DNA of 28,244 nt from a virus: positions 1 through 28,244 of IMG/VR virus record IMGVR_UViG_3300007542_006931. One strand, written 5' to 3'. Shown here in pieces: positions 970 to 20,213 of this stretch. The notes under the pieces were generated by a model that was not told the origin of the DNA, did not search any database, and worked only from the letters and a program-made list of their open reading frames with translations. Position 1 is the stretch's first letter. Every line of letters begins with the position of its first letter. The translations under genes were made by a program, and so were the position numbers.

Positions 970-1291
970 TATCTGCTACTATAGTTTCATACATTTTAGA
1001 AATAGTTGTTAATATTTCATAGGAGCAGTCTAACATTTCTTGCCCTGGATGAGGATTATTATGTGCTCTAAAAATTAAGGCTGAGCTTAAAAAACTAAGT
1101 GCTTCTAAATCTTTAAGCATTCCTGGATTTTCATTAACATCATATCCCATATCTTCTAAAAGCATCATGGTCTCAAAAAACACTTCTTTTGAAACTATTT
1201 TTGCGTTCATAAGATCATCGTCAGGGTCTACAAGTGATTCTGTGTTTTTAATTTTATTTACTCGTTCAAGAAAGTTAATTACTTCCGCCAT
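938..1291 (-). CDS. Hypothetical helical protein, 117 aa
   Basis: I choose the internal ATG at 1291, giving MAEVINFLERVNKI, because an AAGGAG sits about seven bases upstream of it. The longer frame reaching 1351 would add a hydrophobic leader encoded inside the ligase gene and has no such signal. The protein is mostly helical and acidic, with a VDPDDDLMNAKIV segment and a C-terminal half rich in Leu and Met. Function unknown. It overlaps the last 17 bases of the DNA ligase gene, so it belongs to the same transcript. Confidence 0.75.
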   Translation of the reverse strand: MAEVINFLERVNKIKNTESLVDPDDDLMNAKIVSKEVFFETMMLLEDMGYDVNENPGMLKDLEALSFLSSALIFRAHNNPHPGQEMLDCSYEILTTISKMYETIVADNDNAKTDSTL

Positions 1292-3020
1292 AAAATTCTC
1301 CTTTAAGGATAGAAAGCTTATTTTCCCAATAGTTAATAATAGGAATACCATACTTTCTGGCTTTTTCTACTTTAGAAGTTTCTTCACCTGAAGAAATTAA
1401 GTAGTCAGTAGTCTTAGTAACTGAATCTTTTACAATAACACCATGCTCTGCTAAGTGATCTGCAAAGTCTTGCTTTGTCATATCAATTTTACCAGAAACT
1501 ACTACGACTATACGTTCATCTTCTGAAGTAGCACTATTAATAACTGAACTAGTAGAAAGATCATAAGGAAGTTTACGTACCCAATCTTCATTAACGTCTA
1601 GCCATGCTAGAATACTTTCTACAGTTTTAGGGCCAATACCTCGAATAGGTTCATACTGAATCTCGCGAAGACGGTCAAAACTAGGAATATGGTTTACGAT
1701 AGTACGGGCTGTAGATTTACCAACTCCCGGAATACCAAGAGAGCCTAGAACTAGATCATAAGGCTTTGGGCGAGACAGCTCTTGAAGAACTTTCTCTCCG
1801 TTCTTACCCATATGTTCCCATTCTACATGGTCTTCGAATAGCTCTGAAGGATGATTAAGATTGAGTTTTTCAATCCAAGCAGGTCCAAGACCTTTAATAC
1901 CTAGTTGCTTAACGAAGTACTCTACCGACTTCCGCCCATCGCTTTCAGAAGCGAAAAGCTTAGGCCCTTCTCTCCGCAGAGCCATACCGAGTCGTTGCTC
2001 GGCGTCTACAACACTAAAACGAGAAAAAGAGGAACTCTTGATTACGCTCACAAACTGAGGAGTAATTTGACGTTCAATTAGAATTTCATCGCCTAGACCA
2101 AGATTATGCTCTTCAATAAACTCAATGTTGTGTAGAATAACACGAGAGATAGTTGCATCATCAATAGTAACAGGATCAACAATTGCTACAGGTGTAACAA
2201 CTCCAGTACGACCTAGACTCCAGACAATATCTTGAATAGTAGTTTTAGCCGTCATGGCCGCACGCACTTTCAGTGCGACTGCATAACGAGGATACTTGCT
2301 AGTAGCGCCTAAAACTTGTTCTCTACGATAAGACGGAGTTCTGAACACAAACCCATCTGAAGGATAACGACTACAGTCCCAGTTTAGAACTGAGACGAAT
2401 CCTTGATTGTGTAGATCGCCTACGCGATCAAGATAGTCACGCTCTACACCTAGAACATCATGAACTACAAAACGTAGTCCACGGTTTGAGATGTCTGCAG
2501 CATCTTTTACACCTAGAGATCCACTCACAAAGTTGCGAAAGTTTGTGACATCTTCTCGATCTGTAACAACTTCCCCTACAACTGTGATGATAGAACCTGT
2601 TCCGCGAATGCATTTTTCAATGCTCGCGATGTGCGGAACTAGGTGAGTTACATCTTCTCCACGCTCTCCATCACCACGAGTAAGAGCATGAAGTAGATTA
2701 CCACGTTCGTCATAGGTGACTGAAAGATTTGCACCATCAACCTTAACAGTTTTGATGCTAAACTCTTCATCAATCTCACTCTCATCATAAACTTTACGTA
2801 GAGAGTATAGTCGATGAGGATGAACAATTTTACCAGGAGCTGCACCTACACGAACTGTAGGAGAGCTAGAGTCTGCCCAACCTTGACGCTGTTCCATACG
2901 AAGCAGCTTATCATAAAGATCATCATACTCCTGATCTGAAATCGTAGGAGCAGATTCATCATAATACAGTCGAGCATGATGAGAAACAGTTTTTAGTAGA
3001 GATTTGTAATCTTGAATCAT
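1275..3020 (-). CDS. ligA: NAD-dependent DNA ligase lacking the zinc finger
   Basis: This 581-residue protein joins nicks in DNA using NAD+. The order is: domain Ia with YYDESAPTISDQEYDDLYDKL (about 19-39); the adenylation domain with the nucleotidyl-lysine motif KVDG (Lys93) and TRGDGERGEDVTH; an OB fold (about 255-335, GDEILIERQ); helix-hairpin-helix repeats with LGIPGVGKSTA and PIRGIGPKTVE; and a BRCT domain (about 505-580, VVVSGKIDMTKQDF). Cellular LigA enzymes are near 670 residues and carry a four-Cys zinc finger between OB and HhH; no such Cys cluster is present here. The gene is visibly less AT-rich at third codon positions than its neighbours. T4 itself uses an ATP-dependent ligase, so this is a different solution. 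Confidence 0.97.
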   Translation of the reverse strand: MIQDYKSLLKTVSHHARLYYDESAPTISDQEYDDLYDKLLRMEQRQGWADSSSPTVRVGAAPGKIVHPHRLYSLRKVYDESEIDEEFSIKTVKVDGANLSVTYDERGNLLHALTRGDGERGEDVTHLVPHIASIEKCIRGTGSIITVVGEVVTDREDVTNFRNFVSGSLGVKDAADISNRGLRFVVHDVLGVERDYLDRVGDLHNQGFVSVLNWDCSRYPSDGFVFRTPSYRREQVLGATSKYPRYAVALKVRAAMTAKTTIQDIVWSLGRTGVVTPVAIVDPVTIDDATISRVILHNIEFIEEHNLGLGDEILIERQITPQFVSVIKSSSFSRFSVVDAEQRLGMALRREGPKLFASESDGRKSVEYFVKQLGIKGLGPAWIEKLNLNHPSELFEDHVEWEHMGKNGEKVLQELSRPKPYDLVLGSLGIPGVGKSTARTIVNHIPSFDRLREIQYEPIRGIGPKTVESILAWLDVNEDWVRKLPYDLSTSSVINSATSEDERIVVVVSGKIDMTKQDFADHLAEHGVIVKDSVTKTTDYLISSGEETSKVEKARKYGIPIINYWENKLSILKGEFYGGSN

Positions 3021-6081: not shown

Positions 6082-6861
6082 TCAGTCTCTACGCTCAATA
6101 TCTTCTTCCACACACTCGCTGCCCCATTGTATCTCAAGAATATGAGCGTTTACATTTTCAGGATTTGAGGCTTTGTGCCAAACTTGAACACCTATTTCAT
6201 ACGGTTTTAAGTGAGGAGTTAAATAAACAATGCCTGTATTCCAGTTAAACTCTGTTTGCATTTTAACTACCCCTTCGAGAACTATCCATTGTTCAGACCG
6301 TTTAAAGTGTCTTTGATCACTTAAACTCTTGCCAGGATAGATTACAAGCTCTTTTACTTTATAACCTTTTTCAGGTTTGTGGTCTAGTACGCGCCAGTAT
6401 CCCCAATCACGTTCTGTGCGTTGAGTTTTCCACTCGTCGAGTATCCAACTACTAGAGTTAGCTTTATTTTCTCCGCCAACGCCCCATGCAAACTCTAATC
6501 CATAAGTATTCTTATACATATCATACTCTGGAGTGGTGCCAAGATTTCTATCTCCCCCATTCGCAAAGATTATTGTATCTTGACTACCGTGAGTAGAAAG
6601 CATGTGAAAGATAGCATGGCATGCACTTCCATCATCGTCATTAAAAGCAATAACTTCGTCAACCATTTTAAGATTTTTTATGATAGCAGCTCGCTCTTCA
6701 AAAGGCATAAAAGGTCTACCTTTTTTACGAGTAAGCCAGGCATCAGAATTAAGCCCGACAACTAGTTTGTGTCCTAGCTGTCGTGCTGCTTTAAAATACT
6801 CAATGTGTCCAGAGTGTAGAGGATCGAATCCCCCAGTAACTAATACTACGCGTTTAGTCAT
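6082..6861 (-). CDS. Nucleotidyltransferase-cupin fusion protein
   Basis: I start at the ATG at 6861, which overlaps the upstream stop as TAATG; an upstream TTG would add five residues. Residues 1-130 are a cytidylyltransferase-like domain: VVLVTGGFDPLHSGHIEYF with the HxGH motif (His16, His19), then GLNSDAWLTRKKGRPFMPFE. Residues about 155-259 are a cupin like the C-terminal domain of mannose-6-phosphate isomerase/GDP-mannose pyrophosphorylase (GYWRVLDHKPEKGYKVKEL, HFKRSEQWIVLEGVVK). The first domain activates a sugar phosphate with NTP; the cupin may isomerise or epimerise the sugar. The two functions are otherwise seen as separate genes at 10055-10465 and 8946-9320. Confidence 0.88.
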   Translation of the reverse strand: MTKRVVLVTGGFDPLHSGHIEYFKAARQLGHKLVVGLNSDAWLTRKKGRPFMPFEERAAIIKNLKMVDEVIAFNDDDGSACHAIFHMLSTHGSQDTIIFANGGDRNLGTTPEYDMYKNTYGLEFAWGVGGENKANSSSWILDEWKTQRTERDWGYWRVLDHKPEKGYKVKELVIYPGKSLSDQRHFKRSEQWIVLEGVVKMQTEFNWNTGIVYLTPHLKPYEIGVQVWHKASNPENVNAHILEIQWGSECVEEDIERRD

Positions 6862-7118
6862 TATCTCTCGTTGCAAATATCTAAAATATTACGAATTTGG
6901 CTTTCTTTTTCACCAAGTTGTTCTTCGTTTTGTTTATACATCACTGTTGCCGCAGCTCGAACTGCGCTAGAAGCGAGACCATAGGTATCTTTTAAATGCT
7001 TTACTCTGCGGTTGATTTCCTCTCTAGAAGAGTCAATTGCTCCTAGAAAAGCTACAATATCTTGCATTTGTTCTGACACATCTTCTGGATCGATTGGTTT
7101 AATTTCTTTTTCAGCCAT
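6861..7118 (-). CDS. T4 DsbA-like dsDNA-binding protein
   Basis: An 85-residue helical, charged protein. The segment DSSREEINRRVKHLKDTYGL followed by AVRAAATVMYKQNEEQLGEK has the same spacing as T4 DsbA (KISGYNELIKDIRIRAKDEL, then a helix ending LYHKDN). In T4, DsbA is a small double-stranded DNA-binding protein that stimulates late transcription. The match is by eye over about 55 residues and no functional residues can be checked. It overlaps the upstream gene by eight bases and the downstream fusion gene by TAATG. Confidence 0.5.
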   Translation of the reverse strand: MAEKEIKPIDPEDVSEQMQDIVAFLGAIDSSREEINRRVKHLKDTYGLASSAVRAAATVMYKQNEEQLGEKESQIRNILDICNER

Positions 7119-7521: not shown

Positions 7522-7825
7522 TGGTAGTATCTTTCTTAGGTGCGTGCTCTAAATCATGTACATAAAGCTGAATTATTGCATAGTGAATAATTTTCATAAT
7601 ATCATTACGCCACTCTTCAGGAGTTTCACCTTTTTTTCCATATCTATTGCTGTACTTATCAATATTACCCATACAGAATCCAGTTCCGTGGCCTCTATCA
7701 ATAATTACTTCTGTAGATTGGAATTTGTTTTGAGAATAGTGTTGATTATATGTAGATCTGATATAATTAAATACCTCATCTAAATATACATTCTCTTTAA
7801 ACTTAAAATCTATTTTACCAGTCAT
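7514..7825 (-). CDS. DUF3310-like phage protein
   Basis: A 103-residue protein. TGFCMGNIDKYSNRYGKKGE, then WRNDIMKIIHYAIIQLY, matches the DUF3310 pattern of GN-x-x-KY-x-x-RxGKK followed by an acidic D-x-x-K-x-x-HYA helix. This family is widespread in phages and is thought to be related to nucleotide pyrophosphohydrolase folds, but its activity is not established. It overlaps the UvdE stop by 11 bases and the next gene by eight. Confidence 0.75.
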   Translation of the reverse strand: MTGKIDFKFKENVYLDEVFNYIRSTYNQHYSQNKFQSTEVIIDRGHGTGFCMGNIDKYSNRYGKKGETPEEWRNDIMKIIHYAIIQLYVHDLEHAPKKDTTNG

Positions 7826-8900
7826 TTGGAATCCTTTTTGCTACAAGAGCTTCTCCAGCATATTCTTGTTCTTCTTGAATATAAGCATAGAAGCCTTGTA
7901 CTGCTACTTCTTTATTTTTTGCTTCAATATCAAAATCTGCGTATTGCAACATTGGAATATGTCTTGACATATGCTCTTCATCTTCAAATACTTCTGAATG
8001 TGCATTTACTTTCATCCAGTAGTCTGGATTTTCTAAAGGAAAAGATTGAGAAGTATGAAATAGAGGTCTAAACCCTCTCCAAGATTTTACTGCCTCTTTA
8101 AACATATCATCATTTACAGTAATATTTTTTACGTCACGAATCTTGCGATTAACAGTTTTCCCATTAACTACTACTTTTTCAGATTCAGTCATACGGTGAC
8201 AAGCATAATGATGCGTGTCTAAAGTACATCTAATAGGAACTAGCTGTGCTAGTTCTAATGTATGTGCAATATCATACCCGTTAGGTTTATCTTCATTCTC
8301 TACTGCGAGGCAATCTTGTGCATAGTCAGATAGATAGTGAAAGTTTGTAGCAAAACGTTTAATGCCATCAAGATGCTTTCCACCGTACAGTCCTTGTAAG
8401 TGAATATTCATTACAAACTCTTTTGCAGGAATATTCATCAATTTGCCATAGAGAGCATGATACTCTAAGTCTTTAACAGAATTTTCTACAACCTCAGCTT
8501 TATTAGAAGCTAGTACGGTATATTGACCTGGGTGCACACTTAGTCGAACGTTATTTTGCTTAGCAAAGTTTCCTGCTCGTTCTAATAGAATAGAAATATC
8601 ATCCCAAATTTCTGCATACCAGTCTTTAGTAAAATCTAGAGTATAGCAAGGAAACAACTCTGAAGAAATACGAAAACTACGAAGATTGATAGGTTGAGTA
8701 TTAAAATAAGTACTAAGAATATCTACGAGTTTTGAACAGTTTTCAATAGCTTTAGCTTGTACTCTTTGTTTACCATCTGCTTTTAGAGCAAATGTTTTAG
8801 TGGTAGTTCCAAAATTATATCTTTTAGCCAAAGCTTTATCATGAAACTGGCAACATTGAGAAATGCGCCAGTCATAGCTAGAAGAATTGAAATATTCCAT
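7815..8900 (-). CDS. uvdE: UV damage endonuclease (UvdE family)
   Basis: A 361-residue TIM-barrel nuclease that nicks DNA 5' to UV photoproducts and starts light-independent repair. Metal-binding motifs are present in order: SFRISSELFPCY (75-86), RLSVHPGQYTVLAS with His123, VMNIHLQGLYGG with His167, CLAVENEDK with Glu201, and CTLDTHHYACH with Asp228, His230 and His231. All fit the three-metal centre of UVDE. AAGGAT lies upstream of the ATG. T4 uses the unrelated DenV for this purpose, so the gene is a functional analogue. It fits life in sunlit surface water. Confidence 0.95.
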   Translation of the reverse strand: MEYFNSSSYDWRISQCCQFHDKALAKRYNFGTTTKTFALKADGKQRVQAKAIENCSKLVDILSTYFNTQPINLRSFRISSELFPCYTLDFTKDWYAEIWDDISILLERAGNFAKQNNVRLSVHPGQYTVLASNKAEVVENSVKDLEYHALYGKLMNIPAKEFVMNIHLQGLYGGKHLDGIKRFATNFHYLSDYAQDCLAVENEDKPNGYDIAHTLELAQLVPIRCTLDTHHYACHRMTESEKVVVNGKTVNRKIRDVKNITVNDDMFKEAVKSWRGFRPLFHTSQSFPLENPDYWMKVNAHSEVFEDEEHMSRHIPMLQYADFDIEAKNKEVAVQGFYAYIQEEQEYAGEALVAKRIPNDW

Positions 8901-9327: not shown

Positions 9328-10101
9328 TCAATATCCTATGTCTCTTAAATCTTCTTCTGTTATAGTATAAGTTCCAAAATGTTGTACGGATTTAGATGCG
9401 AGAGCTGTAGCAGCCTCAACTCCTTTATGAATATCAAATTTTGTAGTCAGTACTGCCAGTGCAGCTAGAAAAACATCTCCTGCCCCAGTTACATCGTGAA
9501 CTTGAACATTTTTTGCCCTATAAAATACACCTCTACAAACAGAACCTTTACTTCCTAATGTTACTATCTTAGTAGAAGTACTAGGTTTATTGTAACAAAG
9601 ATTATCTTCATACTCATTTACTTTTATATAAGCATGAGGAAAGCAACTTAAGTTTTCTTTTTTTGAATCTACGAACACTAAGCCTGGATAGCGATTACAA
9701 ATAAGTTCAGCGAGCTTAGGGGTGATAAAACCTTTACAGTAGTCTGAAATTACTACTAAATCATAGGGCTCTTTTAAGGCTGTTATTATAGAGGACTCTA
9801 AGGGAGAAACTTTATCTCCAATATCTTGTCGCAATAATTGTTGTTGAGATTTTTCATCAACAAATCTACGTTTAATAATAGAATTTTTATCGTTTGTTAA
9901 AAATTTAATTTTACAACCTAAAGCTTCTAAGTTGTTTTTAACATTTATAGCCATACCGTCTTTTCTAATAGTATGAGAATGTACCATAACTGGAACTGGG
10001 GCTTCTGGTGATATTCTAGTCACCGTACCCATTTTATACTCATCTATACAAGACTCACCTATTAGTAATGCTTTTAATTGTGTTTGTGGTAGAGTAGCCA
10101 T
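9328..10101 (-). CDS. PfkB-family sugar kinase, HldE/RfaE N-domain-like
   Basis: A 257-residue ribokinase-fold enzyme. LLIGESCIDEYKMGTVTRIS followed by PEAPVPV is the HldE/RfaE signature at the N-terminus. The anion-hole and catalytic base motif DVTGAGDVFLAAL (Asp209) is intact. It would phosphorylate a sugar phosphate such as heptose-7-phosphate. It is shorter than the usual ~320-residue kinase domain, and the N-terminal GGAANV motif is altered to DGMAINV, so the substrate could differ. AGG sits seven bases before the ATG. The gene begins 47 bases inside the nucleotidyltransferase gene. Confidence 0.88.
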   Translation of the reverse strand: MATLPQTQLKALLIGESCIDEYKMGTVTRISPEAPVPVMVHSHTIRKDGMAINVKNNLEALGCKIKFLTNDKNSIIKRRFVDEKSQQQLLRQDIGDKVSPLESSIITALKEPYDLVVISDYCKGFITPKLAELICNRYPGLVFVDSKKENLSCFPHAYIKVNEYEDNLCYNKPSTSTKIVTLGSKGSVCRGVFYRAKNVQVHDVTGAGDVFLAALAVLTTKFDIHKGVEAATALASKSVQHFGTYTITEEDLRDIGY

Positions 10102-10465
10102 CTATTCGCCTAAAAAATTTAACTTCCTTAACTAGGTCTTCACCTATAATATATTTATCTTTATATTCTTCTCCTATTACTAAATAGTCGGGCCTATAAA
10201 GTTTCATCAACACTCTTAGTTCTTTTTCTGAGTCAAAGCTTTCTACTGCATCAACACCTTTTATACTACTAATCATAAACATTCTATCGCTTAAACAGTT
10301 TATGGGTCTATCAAGAGATTTATTTGCCCTAACTCTTTCATCCGTATCTAAAGCAGCAACTAAAAAATTTCCCAGAGAGGCTGCATATTTTATAAGTTGA
10401 ATGTGCCCTGGGTGTAAAATATCATAACAGCCATTAATCATTACTATTTTAGGAAATGAGGTCAT
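10055..10465 (-). CDS. Nucleotidyltransferase, HldE/RfaE C-domain-like
   Basis: A 136-residue cytidylyltransferase-fold enzyme: KIVMINGCYDILHPGHIQLI with the HxGH motif (His18, His21), ALDTDERVRANKS, and the closing STTNTIKSI motif (usually ISTTxL). It activates a sugar-1-phosphate with a nucleotide. In most bacteria this domain is fused behind the kinase as HldE. Here the two are separate and in reverse order (nucleotidyltransferase first), overlapping by 47 bases. Confidence 0.9.
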   Translation of the reverse strand: MTSFPKIVMINGCYDILHPGHIQLIKYAASLGNFLVAALDTDERVRANKSLDRPINCLSDRMFMISSIKGVDAVESFDSEKELRVLMKLYRPDYLVIGEEYKDKYIIGEDLVKEVKFFRRIDGYSTTNTIKSITNR

Positions 10466-10856
10466 TAGCTAATACTCTATAATCAAAGGTAATTTCTTCG
10501 CCTATAAGGATTCTATTTTTTGAAACAATAAAATAATTTTCAATATCATATCTAGCATTTGGAGTAGTAGAGTGATTTACATAAAAGCTCATATCAATAC
10601 TAGAAAACCCATTAACAGGTATAAATATAAAATTGTCTGTTTGCTGTAATAAACTTTTATAAAGCTCTGCTACATTACTGTCTATTCTTTTTAAAAATTT
10701 AGAATCTACTTTTGCATACTCTGTAACACGTTTAAGTATAATCGTATTTGGGGGTATATCTTTAATTGCAAAAACACCTACACCGTGTATCGGTGAAGGT
10801 GCTATTTTACAGTAAATATCATTATATGCTTCTGCTATTAGTTTTGCAGCTAACAT
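10449..10856 (-). CDS. SET-domain protein (putative lysine methyltransferase)
   Basis: A 135-residue minimal SET domain. The motifs appear in order: SPIHGVGVFA (GxG at Gly25-Gly27), SFYVNHSTTPNARY with Asn94-His95, and GEEITFDYRV with Tyr126. These bind S-adenosylmethionine and shape the lysine channel. There is no post-SET cysteine cluster. The enzyme would methylate lysines in a host or phage protein; the target is unknown. It overlaps the nucleotidyltransferase gene by 17 bases, which places it in the sugar-nucleotide operon although no functional link is obvious. Confidence 0.85.
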   Translation of the reverse strand: MLAAKLIAEAYNDIYCKIAPSPIHGVGVFAIKDIPPNTIILKRVTEYAKVDSKFLKRIDSNVAELYKSLLQQTDNFIFIPVNGFSSIDMSFYVNHSTTPNARYDIENYFIVSKNRILIGEEITFDYRVLANDLIS

Positions 10857-12240: not shown

Positions 12241-12906
12241 TTATTTATATAAAAATCCTAATCTTGGGTCTGTTAAATTCTTTTCTGCATCCATATAACT
12301 CAAAACATAAGAATAGCCTTGAGCTTTTAATTTACTTATTTGTTCAACAGTAGTTGAATGCCACACAGGTATAATTTCTGAAGCACCTTCTGGAAAGTCT
12401 ATACCCCACCTAAGATGTATTTCAATAATTTTATTATTAATGAACTCAATATTTAAATAAGGAACATTTATATCGTGAACCCATGAAGGAATAGGAATAG
12501 ATTTATTCTCTACTAATTCCCATTTCTCAAACCTACTTAAATTATTATAGTTTGCAGTAGCTTTACTAGTTTGTACTTCTTTAAAAACTAGATTCTCTTT
12601 TATGTAGTTTATACTTAAGTGATCCCCTATAAAGCGTTCACACCAAAATAAACTAGGAGCAAAATCATATACTTTATCTTTTTCTAAAGTTAGTATTTTT
12701 GCTCCGACTCCCATTCCACTTAAATTATAAATAGGTCTAACAACATATTCATTAGTTATAGGTACTGGTTTAGGTACAGGGCCTGCAGAATGCCCTAGTT
12801 TAAGTGCTAGTTCTAATTTATTAAAAGTCCATCTGTACTCAGGAAACTTATCCCAAATATCCCACTCTTCTAAGTCTGATAAATTATAACTTTCCAATAT
12901 ACTCAA
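12241..12906 (-). CDS. Hypothetical protein paired with the GNAT-like gene
   Basis: A 221-residue protein. The part EYVVRPIYNLSGMGVGAKIL followed by FWCERFIGDHLSINYI recalls ATP-grasp enzymes (VRP strand, Gly-rich loop, fGxHxSxD) but the match is weak. The start appears to be TTG at 12906, with no good Shine-Dalgarno sequence, and it overlaps the GNAT-like gene by 23 bases. Translational coupling to that gene is likely, so the two products may act in the same reaction or complex. Function unknown. Confidence 0.65.
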   Translation of the reverse strand: MSILESYNLSDLEEWDIWDKFPEYRWTFNKLELALKLGHSAGPVPKPVPITNEYVVRPIYNLSGMGVGAKILTLEKDKVYDFAPSLFWCERFIGDHLSINYIKENLVFKEVQTSKATANYNNLSRFEKWELVENKSIPIPSWVHDINVPYLNIEFINNKIIEIHLRWGIDFPEGASEIIPVWHSTTVEQISKLKAQGYSYVLSYMDAEKNLTDPRLGFLYK

Positions 12907-13303
12907 AACCGTCTATCTGTTTTTTATATTCGTGGGCTTCTCCAAGATATAAGTAAGAATAACCTAATCTTTTATATCTTGCACACTCACTTTTTAGACT
13001 ATTTATTCCTAATCTAAGTTTAGGTTGTGAGTAGTCCCAAGCAAACTGAATTGCGCTTACTGCGTTTTTACTTCTATATAAAGTAATGAGACTAAAGGCT
13101 ACTAACTTCGAGTCGTTATAGTAGCCGATAGTCTCATTTATGATAAGATCTTCTAGGAAAAGAGGGGTTACACTATCAAAATTTTTATATTCGCAATAAG
13201 TTTTATAAATTGAATAAATTTCTGCATAGTGATTACTATCTAAAATTCTATATGAATCTAACTCTTCATAGTTAGTTTTAGATAGATCAATTCTGCAATA
13301 CAT
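12884..13303 (-). CDS. GNAT-fold protein like aminoacyl-tRNA-protein transferase
   Basis: A 139-residue protein resembling the C-terminal domain of arginyl/leucyl-tRNA-protein transferases (Ate/Bpt). The core runs from SKLVAFSLITLYR through SAIQFAWDYSQPKLRLGINS to ARYKRLGYSYLYLGEAHEYK, matching the family pattern YxxxDPxxxxxSLGxxxxxxxIxxAxxxGxxYLYLGYW and a following KxxYK-like stretch. Cellular enzymes add an amino acid to protein N-termini and mark them for ClpS/ClpAP degradation. The N-terminal Cys-rich domain is missing, so it is a reduced form, or a GNAT acyltransferase of other specificity. Confidence 0.6.
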   Translation of the reverse strand: MYCRIDLSKTNYEELDSYRILDSNHYAEIYSIYKTYCEYKNFDSVTPLFLEDLIINETIGYYNDSKLVAFSLITLYRSKNAVSAIQFAWDYSQPKLRLGINSLKSECARYKRLGYSYLYLGEAHEYKKQIDGFEYIGKL

Positions 13304-17320: not shown

Positions 17321-17800
17321 TTAATTATTAGCAGTTTCCCATCTATAAAAAGTATGGTCTTCAATAGCTGCTATCCTTGTAAGAGATCTACTCCAATAAG
17401 GAGTTATATGATTAGCGTGGTAATGAGTAGCTCCATCAGTAATGTCTACAAATCTACCTTGTATAACTGCTTCTGCTATTGCAGAAGCTATTATGCGTTC
17501 GTCTTCCTCTACCATTCTATCTGGCTTTCCATCACAATACCAAGAAAATTGGCAGTCTCTACGTCCTTCTACGTATCCCTGCTTAACAACAGCACAAATA
17601 GTATCGGGATATCTAGAATCTATAACTCTATTTATAGTAACATGAGCTACTGCAATTTGTCCAATAATATCTTGATTTCTAGATTCAAAATATATATTCT
17701 TAGTTAAGCACATCATGTCTGCGTCACTTATAGAATCTAGAGGTAAGACGGGGCTAAAACTGGATAGTAGGAGAGAAAAAAGTAGTCCTTCCATCGTCAA
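17321..17800 (-). CDS. SleB-like cell wall hydrolase (endolysin)
   Basis: A 159-residue hydrolase of the SleB/Hydrolase_2 family, which cuts peptidoglycan. The N-terminus (MTMEGLLFSLLLSSFSPVLP) is a signal peptide or signal anchor. LTKNIYFESRNQ carries catalytic Glu39; AVAHVTINRV, YPDTICAVV, DCQFSWYCDG and ATHYHANHITPYWS follow in family order. I prefer the TTG at 17800 because AAGGA lies six bases upstream; the ATG two codons later has a spacing of 12. It overlaps the end of the Nei gene by 47 bases. A signal-bearing endolysin can reach the periplasm without a classic holin pore. Confidence 0.93.
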   Translation of the reverse strand: MTMEGLLFSLLLSSFSPVLPLDSISDADMMCLTKNIYFESRNQDIIGQIAVAHVTINRVIDSRYPDTICAVVKQGYVEGRRDCQFSWYCDGKPDRMVEEDERIIASAIAEAVIQGRFVDITDGATHYHANHITPYWSRSLTRIAAIEDHTFYRWETANN

Positions 17801-18599
17801 GAGTAATCCTTTCTACTGGATTGCCATACAAATCAGTTTTCTGATTGTATACCATTAGTTTAGATGCTTCTTTCGTGTAATTACCTGAATTTCCATACAC
17901 ATCTTTATAAGTTTGAATCGTAGAACCTCCAGTTCTATAAGACTCACTTAATACTTTAATTATACAGCCATGTAACCTTGTCAGATCGTCGTCTGAAAGG
18001 TCACTAACCAAGTTAAGCGGTGAAATACGAGCTAAAAATAAACTTTCACTTTTATAAATGTTGCCAACACCACTTATATATCGTTGCTCCATTAAAAACT
18101 TAACAATAGATTTATTATTATTTTTACGGGCAATTTTTAAAAATTCACAAACACTACAAGGATTATTTAACATATCTGGACCGATAGAGTCCAATTTTTT
18201 ATTTAAGATATTACGGTCATTAACTATCTTAATTGTTCCGAAATTTCTAATGTCTTCATAAAAAACAGGCAGCGATTCTGTGTATTTACTATATACTTTA
18301 GTTATATCAAACTGAATTCTGGAATGGGTGGTTTGAGATAGGGCATAACGCCCACTCATACCAAGGGTAGAAAAAATAAAGCGCTCACCTTCAAGTTCCC
18401 ACCAAATAAATTTTCCTTTATTGTGAACTTCTTTAATCAAAAGAGCGCCCCGCTGTAGGGCGCTCTCAAGATTGAAGTAACCATCAGGTGCTTTTTTAGT
18501 GTACCTACCTGACAAAATAGTAATAGAGTCTAGTAGTGCATTTTTAACAACAGAATTAAGTTGATTAGCTACGCGGGTTACTTCTGGACCTTCAGGCAT
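17754..18599 (-). CDS. Fpg/Nei DNA glycosylase with zincless finger
   Basis: A 281-residue base-excision enzyme that removes oxidised bases and cuts the strand. It begins MPEGPEVTRV: the N-terminal Pro2 is the nucleophile and Glu3 the acid. Lys63 in KGKFIWWE and the H2TH motif (YISGVGNIYKSESLFLARIS, about 172-191) are intact. The usual C-terminal finger (CxxC...CxxC) is lost: the region reads KTDLYGNPVERITLDDGRTT then FFSPTIQF, with no cysteine but with the key Arg271. This is the zincless finger pattern known from NEIL1 and mimivirus Nei1. It starts eight bases inside the previous gene. Confidence 0.93.
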   Translation of the reverse strand: MPEGPEVTRVANQLNSVVKNALLDSITILSGRYTKKAPDGYFNLESALQRGALLIKEVHNKGKFIWWELEGERFIFSTLGMSGRYALSQTTHSRIQFDITKVYSKYTESLPVFYEDIRNFGTIKIVNDRNILNKKLDSIGPDMLNNPCSVCEFLKIARKNNNKSIVKFLMEQRYISGVGNIYKSESLFLARISPLNLVSDLSDDDLTRLHGCIIKVLSESYRTGGSTIQTYKDVYGNSGNYTKEASKLMVYNQKTDLYGNPVERITLDDGRTTFFSPTIQF

Positions 18600-19532: not shown

Positions 19533-19795
19533 AAATAAGTGTTAAAAGATATAATAATGATATATCTAAAGCATATAGAATTATGATGCGAAAACTAAAT
19601 GCTGAGGGATTCTATACCGATACAAAAAGAAAAAGTTTTTATGTATCAAAGAGTGAACAAGCTAGAGAAGACAAAAAAGCTGGGACAGCTAGATACAGAA
19701 AAGCAGAAGCAAAAAGACGCGCCCTAATTGATAAACTAGAACAAAAACAGGCTTTTAACAAAAAAGTAACAAAACCAGCAAAGAGTAAAAATTAA
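19529..19795 (+). CDS. rpsU: Ribosomal protein bS21
   Basis: An 88-residue basic protein matching bS21: VKRYNNDISKAYRIMMRKLN, FYTDTKRKSFYVSKSEQARE and KAGTARYRKAEAKRRALIDK, equivalent to the family's N-terminal strand, the RRxFY core (here KRKSFY) and the Arg/Lys-rich helix. bS21 lies at the 30S platform near the anti-Shine-Dalgarno sequence and influences mRNA selection. Viral bS21 is known in several marine phages, including SAR11 phages. The C-terminal KKVTKPAKSKN extension is viral-like. It is followed at once by the permuted tmRNA gene; both act on ribosomes. Confidence 0.92.
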   Translation: MKISVKRYNNDISKAYRIMMRKLNAEGFYTDTKRKSFYVSKSEQAREDKKAGTARYRKAEAKRRALIDKLEQKQAFNKKVTKPAKSKN

Positions 19796-19807
19796 ATTTA
19801 ATTTTTA
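19786..19807. repeat. Perfect 22-base AT palindrome over the rpsU stop codon
   Basis: The sequence from 19786 to 19807 equals its own reverse complement over all 22 bases (TAAAAATTAAA and its mirror). The rpsU TAA at 19793-19795 lies inside. Its 13-base core TTAAATTTAATTT recurs at 19831-19843. It may form a weak hairpin that separates rpsU from the tmRNA or protects an RNA end. Confidence 0.7.
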
Positions 19808-19849
19808 GTTGCTAAGTGGTATTTTTTATGTTAAATTTAATTTGTAAAC

Positions 19850-19905
19850 GTTGAAGCGACGTGGACACATTCTGGACTCGGGGGCGGTACCCGACGACTC
19901 CACCA
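19850..19905 (+). ncRNA. tmRNA acceptor piece
   Basis: This part supplies the 3' half of the tRNA-like domain: P2 strand (19866-19874), T-stem TCGGG (19878-19882), loop GGCGGTA, CCCGA (19890-19894), acceptor CGACTCC (19895-19901), discriminator A (19902) and encoded CCA (19903-19905). The GGGGGCGGTACCC-type T-arm is characteristic of alphaproteobacterial two-piece tmRNA. Its 5' boundary is a guess. Confidence 0.9.
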
Positions 19906-19976
19906 TAAACATACTCGTGTACCCAAACATATATCAGCAGGGTTGGAAGGGCTGATACTTGGAGTATGTTTTTGAT
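19906..19976 (+). other. tmRNA internal spacer with two nested hairpins
   Basis: This removed spacer joins the two pieces. AAACATACTC (19907-19916) pairs perfectly over 10 bp with GAGTATGTTT (19962-19971). CCAT (19903-19906) can also pair with ATGG (19975-19978), continuing the acceptor stem. Inside, TATCAGC (19932-19938) pairs with GCTGATA (19951-19957) around a 12-base loop. The precursor thus folds into a long rod that would bring both termini to host RNases for cutting. Confidence 0.88.
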
Positions 19977-20180
19977 GGGGTCGAAATAGGATCGACAGGT
20001 GTGAAGATAGAGTGGAGTTTACCGGATGACCTCGTATCGGTCGATTAAACTAAATGCAAACGATAATTTTGCACCATCTGAGTTCGCTCTAGCAGCGTAA
20101 CCGCAGTGGGTATGAGTTCCACCTAGAAACAGAACGGGCTCGCTCCTTAACAGTTTATCGGGGTCACTACCTAATAAGTG
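19977..20180 (+). ncRNA. tmRNA coding piece
   Basis: Starts at GGGGTCG, followed by AAATAGGATCGACAGG, which carries the conserved GGATCGAC D-loop-like motif of tmRNA. ACCG (near 20021) and CGGT can form part of the first pseudoknot. The tag frame lies at 20056-20100. After it, GTGGG/TCCAC closes a seven-base loop (20106-20122). The 3' limit is not visible. Confidence 0.9.
20056..20100 (+). other. tmRNA proteolysis tag reading frame (ANDNFAPSEFALAA)
   Basis: Reading from the resume codon GCA at 20056 gives A-N-D-N-F-A-P-S-E-F-A-L-A-A and TAA at 20098-20100. With the Ala carried by the tmRNA, the tag is (A)ANDNFAPSEFALAA. The AND-N-F core matches alphaproteobacterial tags (Caulobacter AANDNFAEEFAVAA). 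The closing ALAA is the ClpX-recognised end, and the NDNF start suits SspB-type adaptors. Confidence 0.95.
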
Positions 20181-20183
20181 CGC

Positions 20184-20213
20184 GCTGTGCCACGGTTAGC
20201 ACAGCATCTTTTT
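20184..20213 (+). terminator. Rho-independent terminator after the tmRNA
   Basis: GCTGTGC (20184-20190) and GCACAGC (20199-20205) form a perfect 7-bp stem around an eight-base loop, followed by ATCTTTTT. It would end the tmRNA transcript before the glycan operon. Confidence 0.85.

What the first reader, a model, noticed from the sequence alone, without database searches (positions are those of the whole stretch)
12241..13303. Aminoacyl-transferase-like GNAT with an unknown coupled partner
The YLYLG core of Ate/Bpt enzymes is visible but the N-terminal Cys domain is absent. If active, the phage would have both N-end tagging and C-end tagging (tmRNA) in one genome, both feeding host Clp proteases. 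The partner has weak ATP-grasp features.
Basis: inference. Interest (0 to 1): 0.68.

Follow-up and report, generated by a model that had tools for sequence, protein, structure and literature searches.

The report
Phage one-domain aminoacyl-transferase with ATP-grasp partner
A phage carries a stripped-down relative of enzymes that move amino acids off transfer RNA, overlapping a small ATP-grasp ligase-like gene; together they look like a viral amide-bond-making module rather than a protein-degradation tagger.

Summary
The 139-aa protein (12884-13303, -) is a stand-alone ATE_C domain (Pfam E 1e-7, above cut-off; 22 of 24 viral relatives match). Its predicted GNAT fold matches aminoacyl-tRNA-dependent enzymes best. 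The acetyl-CoA motif occurs in 0/85 viral homologues, against 15/20 acetyltransferases. The 221-aa partner (12241-12906, -; 23-nt overlap) has a confident model whose 50 best re-aligned PDB matches are all ATP-grasp enzymes; sequence alone barely shows it. The pairing recurs: 14 of 85 distinct viral ATE_C proteins lie beside this partner, 7 with it upstream and 7 downstream.

The N-degron reading is not supported. No viral homologue examined carries the Cys-cluster ATE_N domain. Neighbours in relatives are a DUF6875-like protein (72/85), DUF6614 (39/85) and an arginine:glycine-amidinotransferase homologue (33/85), which suggest small-molecule chemistry; the window itself shows only the pair.

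Best reading: an aa-tRNA-dependent amide-forming transferase plus an ATP-grasp ligase acting on a small acceptor (peptide, glycan or metabolite). The reaction is inferred, not shown. About 500 viral relatives were found, none convincingly among isolate phages. It is a new variant of a known kind.

The parts
12884..13303 (-). Stand-alone ATE_C / GNAT protein, 139 aa, ATG start; conserved core LVAFS...QFAWDY..PKLRLG..SLK.ECA.YK..GY.YLYLG...YK
   Evidence: Pfam PF04377 33.1 bits vs cut-off 25; AF2 pLDDT 92.9 GNAT model; Foldseek/VIA matches to MprF, Ate1, FemX, Sba18; about 500 viral relatives
12241..12906 (-). Partner, 221 aa, TTG start: minimal ATP-grasp-fold protein of phrog_3577
   Evidence: phrog_3577 E 4e-28; AF2 pLDDT 93.7; PylC and other ATP-grasp enzymes by fold; at least 545 viral relatives
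12884..12906 (-). 23-nt overlap of the end of the GNAT gene with the start of the partner gene (translational coupling likely)
   Evidence: ORF coordinates; overlaps of 3 to 34 nt in most of the other linked loci
12941..12955 (-). YLYLG motif (residues 117-121), followed by the invariant Y-K pair at residues 126-127, as in Bpt YLYLG...YK
   Evidence: Alignment of viral ATE_C with Acinetobacter Bpt and Bacteroidota ATE_C proteins

Best explanation
The pair is a two-enzyme amide-forming module. The small GNAT takes an amino acid from a host aminoacyl-tRNA and transfers it to an amine on an acceptor. The ATP-grasp partner makes (ATP-dependently) the acceptor or adds a further residue. The acceptor is most likely a small molecule, short peptide or glycan rather than a protein N-terminus, because the ATE_N acceptor domain is missing and the relatives' neighbours are small-molecule enzymes. 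Shown: homology, folds, lack of the acetyl-CoA motif, recurrent coupling, purifying selection. Inferred: use of aminoacyl-tRNA, which amino acid, ATP use by the partner, acceptor, and benefit to the phage.
For: ATE_C by Pfam, NCBIfam and PDB profile search. hhalign to ATE_C/Bpt 93.7%, E 1.9e-7, vs acetyl-GNAT 4.8%, E 8e-3; acetyl-CoA motif 0/85 vs 15/20. Best structural matches MprF Z 15.9, with Ate1, FemX and the aa-tRNA-dependent streptothricin enzyme Sba18 also listed. Partner is ATP-grasp by fold (PylC, peptide ligases, PurK) with R56-P57, N60, G63, E89, N151, E153, E161, H163 invariant in 49 sequences. ATE_C-partner adjacency in 14/85, in both gene orders, 4 changes on the tree. Neighbouring AGAT-like amidinotransferase (E 5e-28) in 33/85. 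Precedent: GNAT-fold aa-tRNA ligases and ATP-grasp ligases in peptide-metabolite pathways (PMC2922099, PMC12945691).
Against: No biochemical evidence. A single 139-aa GNAT is smaller than the characterised aa-tRNA-dependent relatives, which have a second GNAT or an added acceptor domain. VipF and N-myristoyltransferase score within 2 Z of MprF, so fold alone does not fix the donor. The partner lacks the canonical ATP-grasp Lys (Arg) and Asn (His) and is unrecognised by sequence. Most partner genes (55 of 69 distinct) occur without ATE_C. The window shows no amidinotransferase, DUF6875-like or DUF6614 gene.
Confidence: 0.45

Rival explanations
1. The GNAT is an N-end (Arg or Leu) protein transferase that marks host or phage proteins for ClpAP via ClpS; the partner or another protein supplies acceptor recognition.
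For: The nearest sequence family is Ate/Bpt; the YLYLG...YK core is kept.
Against: No ATE_N Cys domain in any of the 85 homologues. Neighbours are ligase-, amidinotransferase- and DUF6875-like. No ClpS or Clp protein was recognised by eye in the window ORF list.
Confidence: 0.12
2. The GNAT descends from ATE_C but uses another donor (acyl-CoA, acyl carrier protein or a free activated amino acid made by the ATP-grasp partner).
For: VipF and NMT-type acyl-CoA enzymes score within 2 Z of MprF. Coupling to an ATP-grasp could provide a non-tRNA activated donor.
Against: Acetyl-CoA motif absent in 0/85 having it. Profile similarity is to ATE_C, not to acetyl-GNATs.
Confidence: 0.2
3. The partner is a catalytically dead ATP-grasp fold that replaces ATE_N as the acceptor-binding subunit of the GNAT.
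For: Canonical Lys and Asn positions are Arg and His in all 49 (inferred register). Overlapping genes in both orders suggest a complex.
Against: Active-site-like residues E89, N151, E153, E161 and R165 are invariant or nearly so. The partner is common without the GNAT: 55 of 69 distinct partner proteins.
Confidence: 0.13

Closest known systems
Ate1/Bpt aminoacyl-tRNA-protein transferases (Pfam ATE_N + ATE_C)
   Same: ATE_C core, GNAT fold, YLYLG...YK motif; best sequence-level match in Pfam and PDB
   Different: No ATE_N Cys cluster or substrate domain; loop between YLYLG and YK is 6 residues shorter; linked to other genes
MprF/aPGS C-terminal domain, FemX and Sba18/Sbb17 (aa-tRNA-dependent GNAT-fold ligases)
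   Same: Best fold matches (MprF Z 15.9, FemX 14.2, Sba18 13.1)
   Different: Those chains are longer and, for FemX-type enzymes, hold two GNAT domains (PMC12945691); the phage protein is one domain, soluble, without sequence-level match to them
PylC, PurK and other ATP-grasp ligases
   Same: Predicted fold of the partner over nearly its whole length
   Different: 220 aa instead of 300-470; Arg and His where ATP-grasp enzymes have Lys and Asn; no significant sequence match
phrog_3577 (function unknown; cyanophage gene found upstream of gp25)
   Same: Partner belongs to it (E 4e-28)
   Different: In the cyanophages looked at it has no ATE_C neighbour
tRNA-dependent natural-product systems (VlmA, PacB, DhpH-C, Orf11) and ATP-grasp/GNAT peptide pathways surveyed in PMC2922099 and PMC12945691
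   Same: Same enzyme kinds, proposed to build peptide-like metabolites
   Different: Those described are cellular; here the genes are viral and the GNAT is of the ATE_C type

Membership tests
Ate1/Bpt aminoacyl-tRNA-protein transferases | ATE_C domain | tested here: met
   Pfam above cut-off, 22/24 relatives, hhalign 93.7% E 1.9e-7
Ate1/Bpt aminoacyl-tRNA-protein transferases | ATE_N domain with Cys cluster (putative substrate-binding domain) | tested here: not met
   139 aa, no ATE_N hit; distinct viral homologues are single-domain, 138-186 aa
Ate1/Bpt aminoacyl-tRNA-protein transferases | tRNA-contacting basic helix and surface on the GNAT domain | tested here: inconclusive
   K39 nearly invariant, K110 and K126 invariant (alignment numbering); no docking or electrostatics could be run
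Ate1/Bpt aminoacyl-tRNA-protein transferases | Transfer of Arg/Leu from tRNA to protein N-termini | not testable with these tools
   Needs an in vitro assay
Acetyl-CoA-dependent GNATs (PF00583) | Motif A [RQ]xxGx[GA] for the CoA pyrophosphate | tested here: not met
   0/85 viral homologues against 15/20 PF00583 controls
MprF/FemX GNAT ligases | Tandem GNAT domains (FemX type) or membrane domain (MprF) | tested here: not met
   Single 139-aa domain by model and length distribution
ATP-grasp superfamily | ATP-grasp fold | tested here: met
   AF2 pLDDT 93.7; PurK Z 12.6, 207 residues aligned at 3.9 A; PylC Foldseek E 1.5e-7; 50 of 50 listed VIA matches ATP-grasp
ATP-grasp superfamily | Conserved ATP and Mg2+ ligands (Lys of the glycine-rich loop, Glu, E-x-N) | tested here: inconclusive
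   Glu positions invariant, Lys to Arg56 and Asn to His163 in all 49; the register is from a weak profile alignment (E 0.03)
ATP-grasp superfamily | Recognisable by Pfam/PDB sequence profiles | tested here: not met
   ATP-grasp_3 in 2/49 at best E 0.07; no PDB sequence hit
phrog_3577 | Profile match | tested here: met
   E 4.1e-28 over residues 19-202

The most novel reading that the evidence does not exclude
Phages carry a dedicated aminoacyl-tRNA-dependent biosynthetic cassette (DUF6875-like protein, one-domain ATE_C transferase, DUF6614, AGAT-like amidinotransferase, sometimes an ATP-grasp ligase) that diverts charged host tRNA into a virus-specified, possibly arginine-derived, small molecule or glycan decoration. 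The window pair would be a reduced form of it.
Probability: 0.25. Interest if true: 0.8.

Novelty: new variant of a known kind. Interest (0 to 1): 0.55.

Why it matters
Aminoacyl-tRNA-dependent transferases outside translation are known from cell walls, lipids, N-degrons and some antibiotics. A large, unannotated viral family of the ATE_C type, reduced to one domain and recurrently coupled to ligase-like and amidinotransferase genes, would mean that phages draw on charged tRNA for something other than protein synthesis. It also gives a testable fold-based assignment (ATP-grasp) to phrog_3577, a widespread cyanophage gene of unknown function.

Tried and rejected
Ordinary acetyltransferase: rejected by profile scores and the missing motif A. 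Host-like Bpt acquired whole: rejected, no ATE_N and no close cellular relatives (one MAG contig in the genome scan). Isolate-phage homologues: none for the window GNAT in 50,697 records at E up to 1; another member gave 3 weak hits (E 0.3 or worse), two on a true Bpt in 'Acinetobacter phage MD-2021a', whose neighbours (ftsK, trxB, aat, rimI) look like host chromosome. ATP-grasp by sequence: PurK profile failed (E 0.5), ATP-grasp_3 weak (E 0.03). DUF6875 in Bacteroidota genomes: nothing rang, uninformative. Papers: nothing found on phage ATE_C or phage arginyltransferase in the held library. Ate1 is not among the 50 VIA rows shown, though Foldseek lists it. Promoter/terminator scan gave no more sites than shuffles.

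Full report
What is there. On the - strand, ORF 12884-13303 (139 aa, ATG) is followed with a 23-nt overlap by ORF 12241-12906 (221 aa, TTG). The record is a 28,244-base IMG/VR viral contig. It carries a permuted alphaproteobacterial tmRNA at about 19793-20191 on the + strand.

The GNAT. Pfam assigns ATE_C at 33.1 bits (cut-off 25, E 9.9e-8) over residues 49-121. NCBIfam arginyltransferase models match far below their cut-offs, as expected for a partial domain. Of 24 diverse viral relatives, 22 match ATE_C. A profile of the viral family hits only Ate1 enzymes among plausible PDB matches (E 1.3e-3). Profile-profile comparison with cellular Bpt/ATE_C proteins gives 93.7% probability (E 1.9e-7), against 4.8% (E 8e-3) for acetyl-GNATs from PF00583. 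The CoA motif [RQ]xxGx[GA] is in 0 of 85 viral homologues and 15 of 20 acetyl-GNAT controls. The alignment shares G(D/N)xLIAxS, an Asp after the central strand, LGxxSL, YxYLG and a Y-K pair with Bpt; the loop between YLYLG and YK is 6 residues shorter in the phage protein.

Fold. AlphaFold2 gives pLDDT 92.9. Foldseek's best PDB matches are MprF/aPGS C-terminal domains and Ate1, and the list includes Sba18, an aa-tRNA-dependent streptothricin enzyme. VIA-align gives MprF Z 15.9, VipF 14.5, FemX 14.2 and N-myristoyltransferase 14.0. The fold alone therefore does not decide the donor; sequence and the missing motif do the work. In ATE1 the GNAT domain binds the tRNA acceptor arm, and the Cys-cluster domain is the putative polypeptide-binding part (PMC10115844). 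The viral proteins have only the former.

The partner. It belongs to phrog_3577, function unknown, also found in cyanophages upstream of the gp25 baseplate gene. At least 545 relatives exist in viral contigs. The model (pLDDT 93.7) matches PylC (Foldseek E 1.5e-7) and other ATP-grasp ligases. All 50 VIA rows are ATP-grasp enzymes, PurK at Z 12.6 over 207 residues. Sequence searches barely see this: ATP-grasp_3 in 2 of 49 members at E 0.07; profile alignment to ATP-grasp_3 gives E 0.03 but pairs E89 with the Glu of the E-x-x-x-G segment and E161-I-H-L-R with E-I-N-x-R. In 49 members R56, P57, N60, G63, E89, N151, E153, E161 and H163 are invariant (alignment numbering, one less than protein numbering). 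Lys to Arg and Asn to His at two canonical positions leave activity open.

Is the coupling real? In 85 distinct viral ATE_C proteins, the partner lies within 600 bp in 14, always on the same strand, 7 upstream and 7 downstream, mostly with overlapping ends. On a maximum-likelihood tree the label needs 4 changes (at least 3 forced by supported branches) against 13.6 in shuffles; shuffles only show clustering. So the arrangement arose or was rearranged more than once. Conversely, 14 of 69 distinct partners have ATE_C beside them; the partner also works elsewhere. Both families show strong purifying selection (median dN/dS 0.08 and 0.10). The loci are the best 80 per search, so these frequencies are not unbiased.

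The wider neighbourhood. In 72 of 85 viral ATE_C loci a DUF6875/DUF1415-like protein is near, usually overlapping by a few bases; DUF6614 in 39; an amidinotransferase homologous to AGAT, SxtG and StrB-type enzymes (E 5e-28 to AGAT) in 33. The DUF6875 assignment is weak (15 of 22 members, best E 5e-4). DUF6875 proteins are reported as haem-binding L-Trp oxidising enzymes (PMC13307353). Four of the 14 partner-linked loci besides L018 and L037 were checked for these genes: L050, L051 and L052 also carry the DUF6875-like gene, L049 does not; L018 and L037 carry all of them. The window itself has none of these apart from the pair, but it is a fragment.

Interpretation. aa-tRNA-dependent GNAT ligases and ATP-grasp ligases both serve peptide-metabolite pathways (PMC2922099; PMC12945691). 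With the N-degron acceptor domain missing and small-molecule enzymes as neighbours in relatives, an amide-forming module on a small acceptor is the best-supported reading. About 0.6 for aminoacyl-tRNA use by the GNAT; about 0.45 for the whole statement. No step of the chemistry was shown here. N-end tagging is not excluded but loses its defining domain and any contextual support.

Novelty. The enzyme kinds are known. A one-domain viral ATE_C family of about 500 members, without a PHROG match for the window protein, essentially absent from isolate phages and from cellular genomes, and coupled to a minimal ATP-grasp protein, is a new variant.

Noticed in passing
window 19793-20191 (+): Permuted alphaproteobacterial tmRNA, tag ANDNFAPSEFALAA, suggesting an alphaproteobacterial host; found by ARAGORN and Rfam.
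   Followed up: partly
window 10449-10856 (-): Small SET-domain protein (Pfam SET E 1.5e-11), a possible protein lysine methyltransferase, unusual in a phage.
   Followed up: no
window 6082-6876, 9328-10465 (-): Cytidylyltransferase-like and PfkB-kinase genes with a cupin/mannose-6-phosphate-isomerase-like part, suggesting sugar-nucleotide (heptose-type) synthesis by the phage.
   Followed up: no
window 1275-3020, 7815-8900, 17754-18599 (-): DNA repair set: NAD-dependent DNA ligase, UvdE UV endonuclease, Fpg/Nei-type glycosylase.
   Followed up: no
L018:5459-8500, L007, L176, L205 and other viral loci: Recurrent viral cassette: DUF6875-like protein, one-domain ATE_C, DUF6614, AGAT-like amidinotransferase, sometimes radical SAM genes; possibly a phage biosynthetic pathway.
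   Followed up: partly
L019:1504-2364 and near-copies L020-L026: ORF that by eye resembles a class II aminoacyl-tRNA synthetase core, just upstream of the DUF6875-like and ATE_C genes in one group of closely related viral contigs; not tested against any library.
   Followed up: no
L046, L047 (Synechococcus phages ACG-2014f, S-T4): phrog_3577 (the ATP-grasp-fold partner) sits just upstream of gp25 and gp6 baseplate genes in these cyanophages, without ATE_C.
   Followed up: partly
L142 (CAKLQH020000030.1, 'Acinetobacter phage MD-2021a'): Record filed as a phage carries ftsK, trxB, aat, bpt and rimI in a row and looks like host chromosome at this end.
   Followed up: partly
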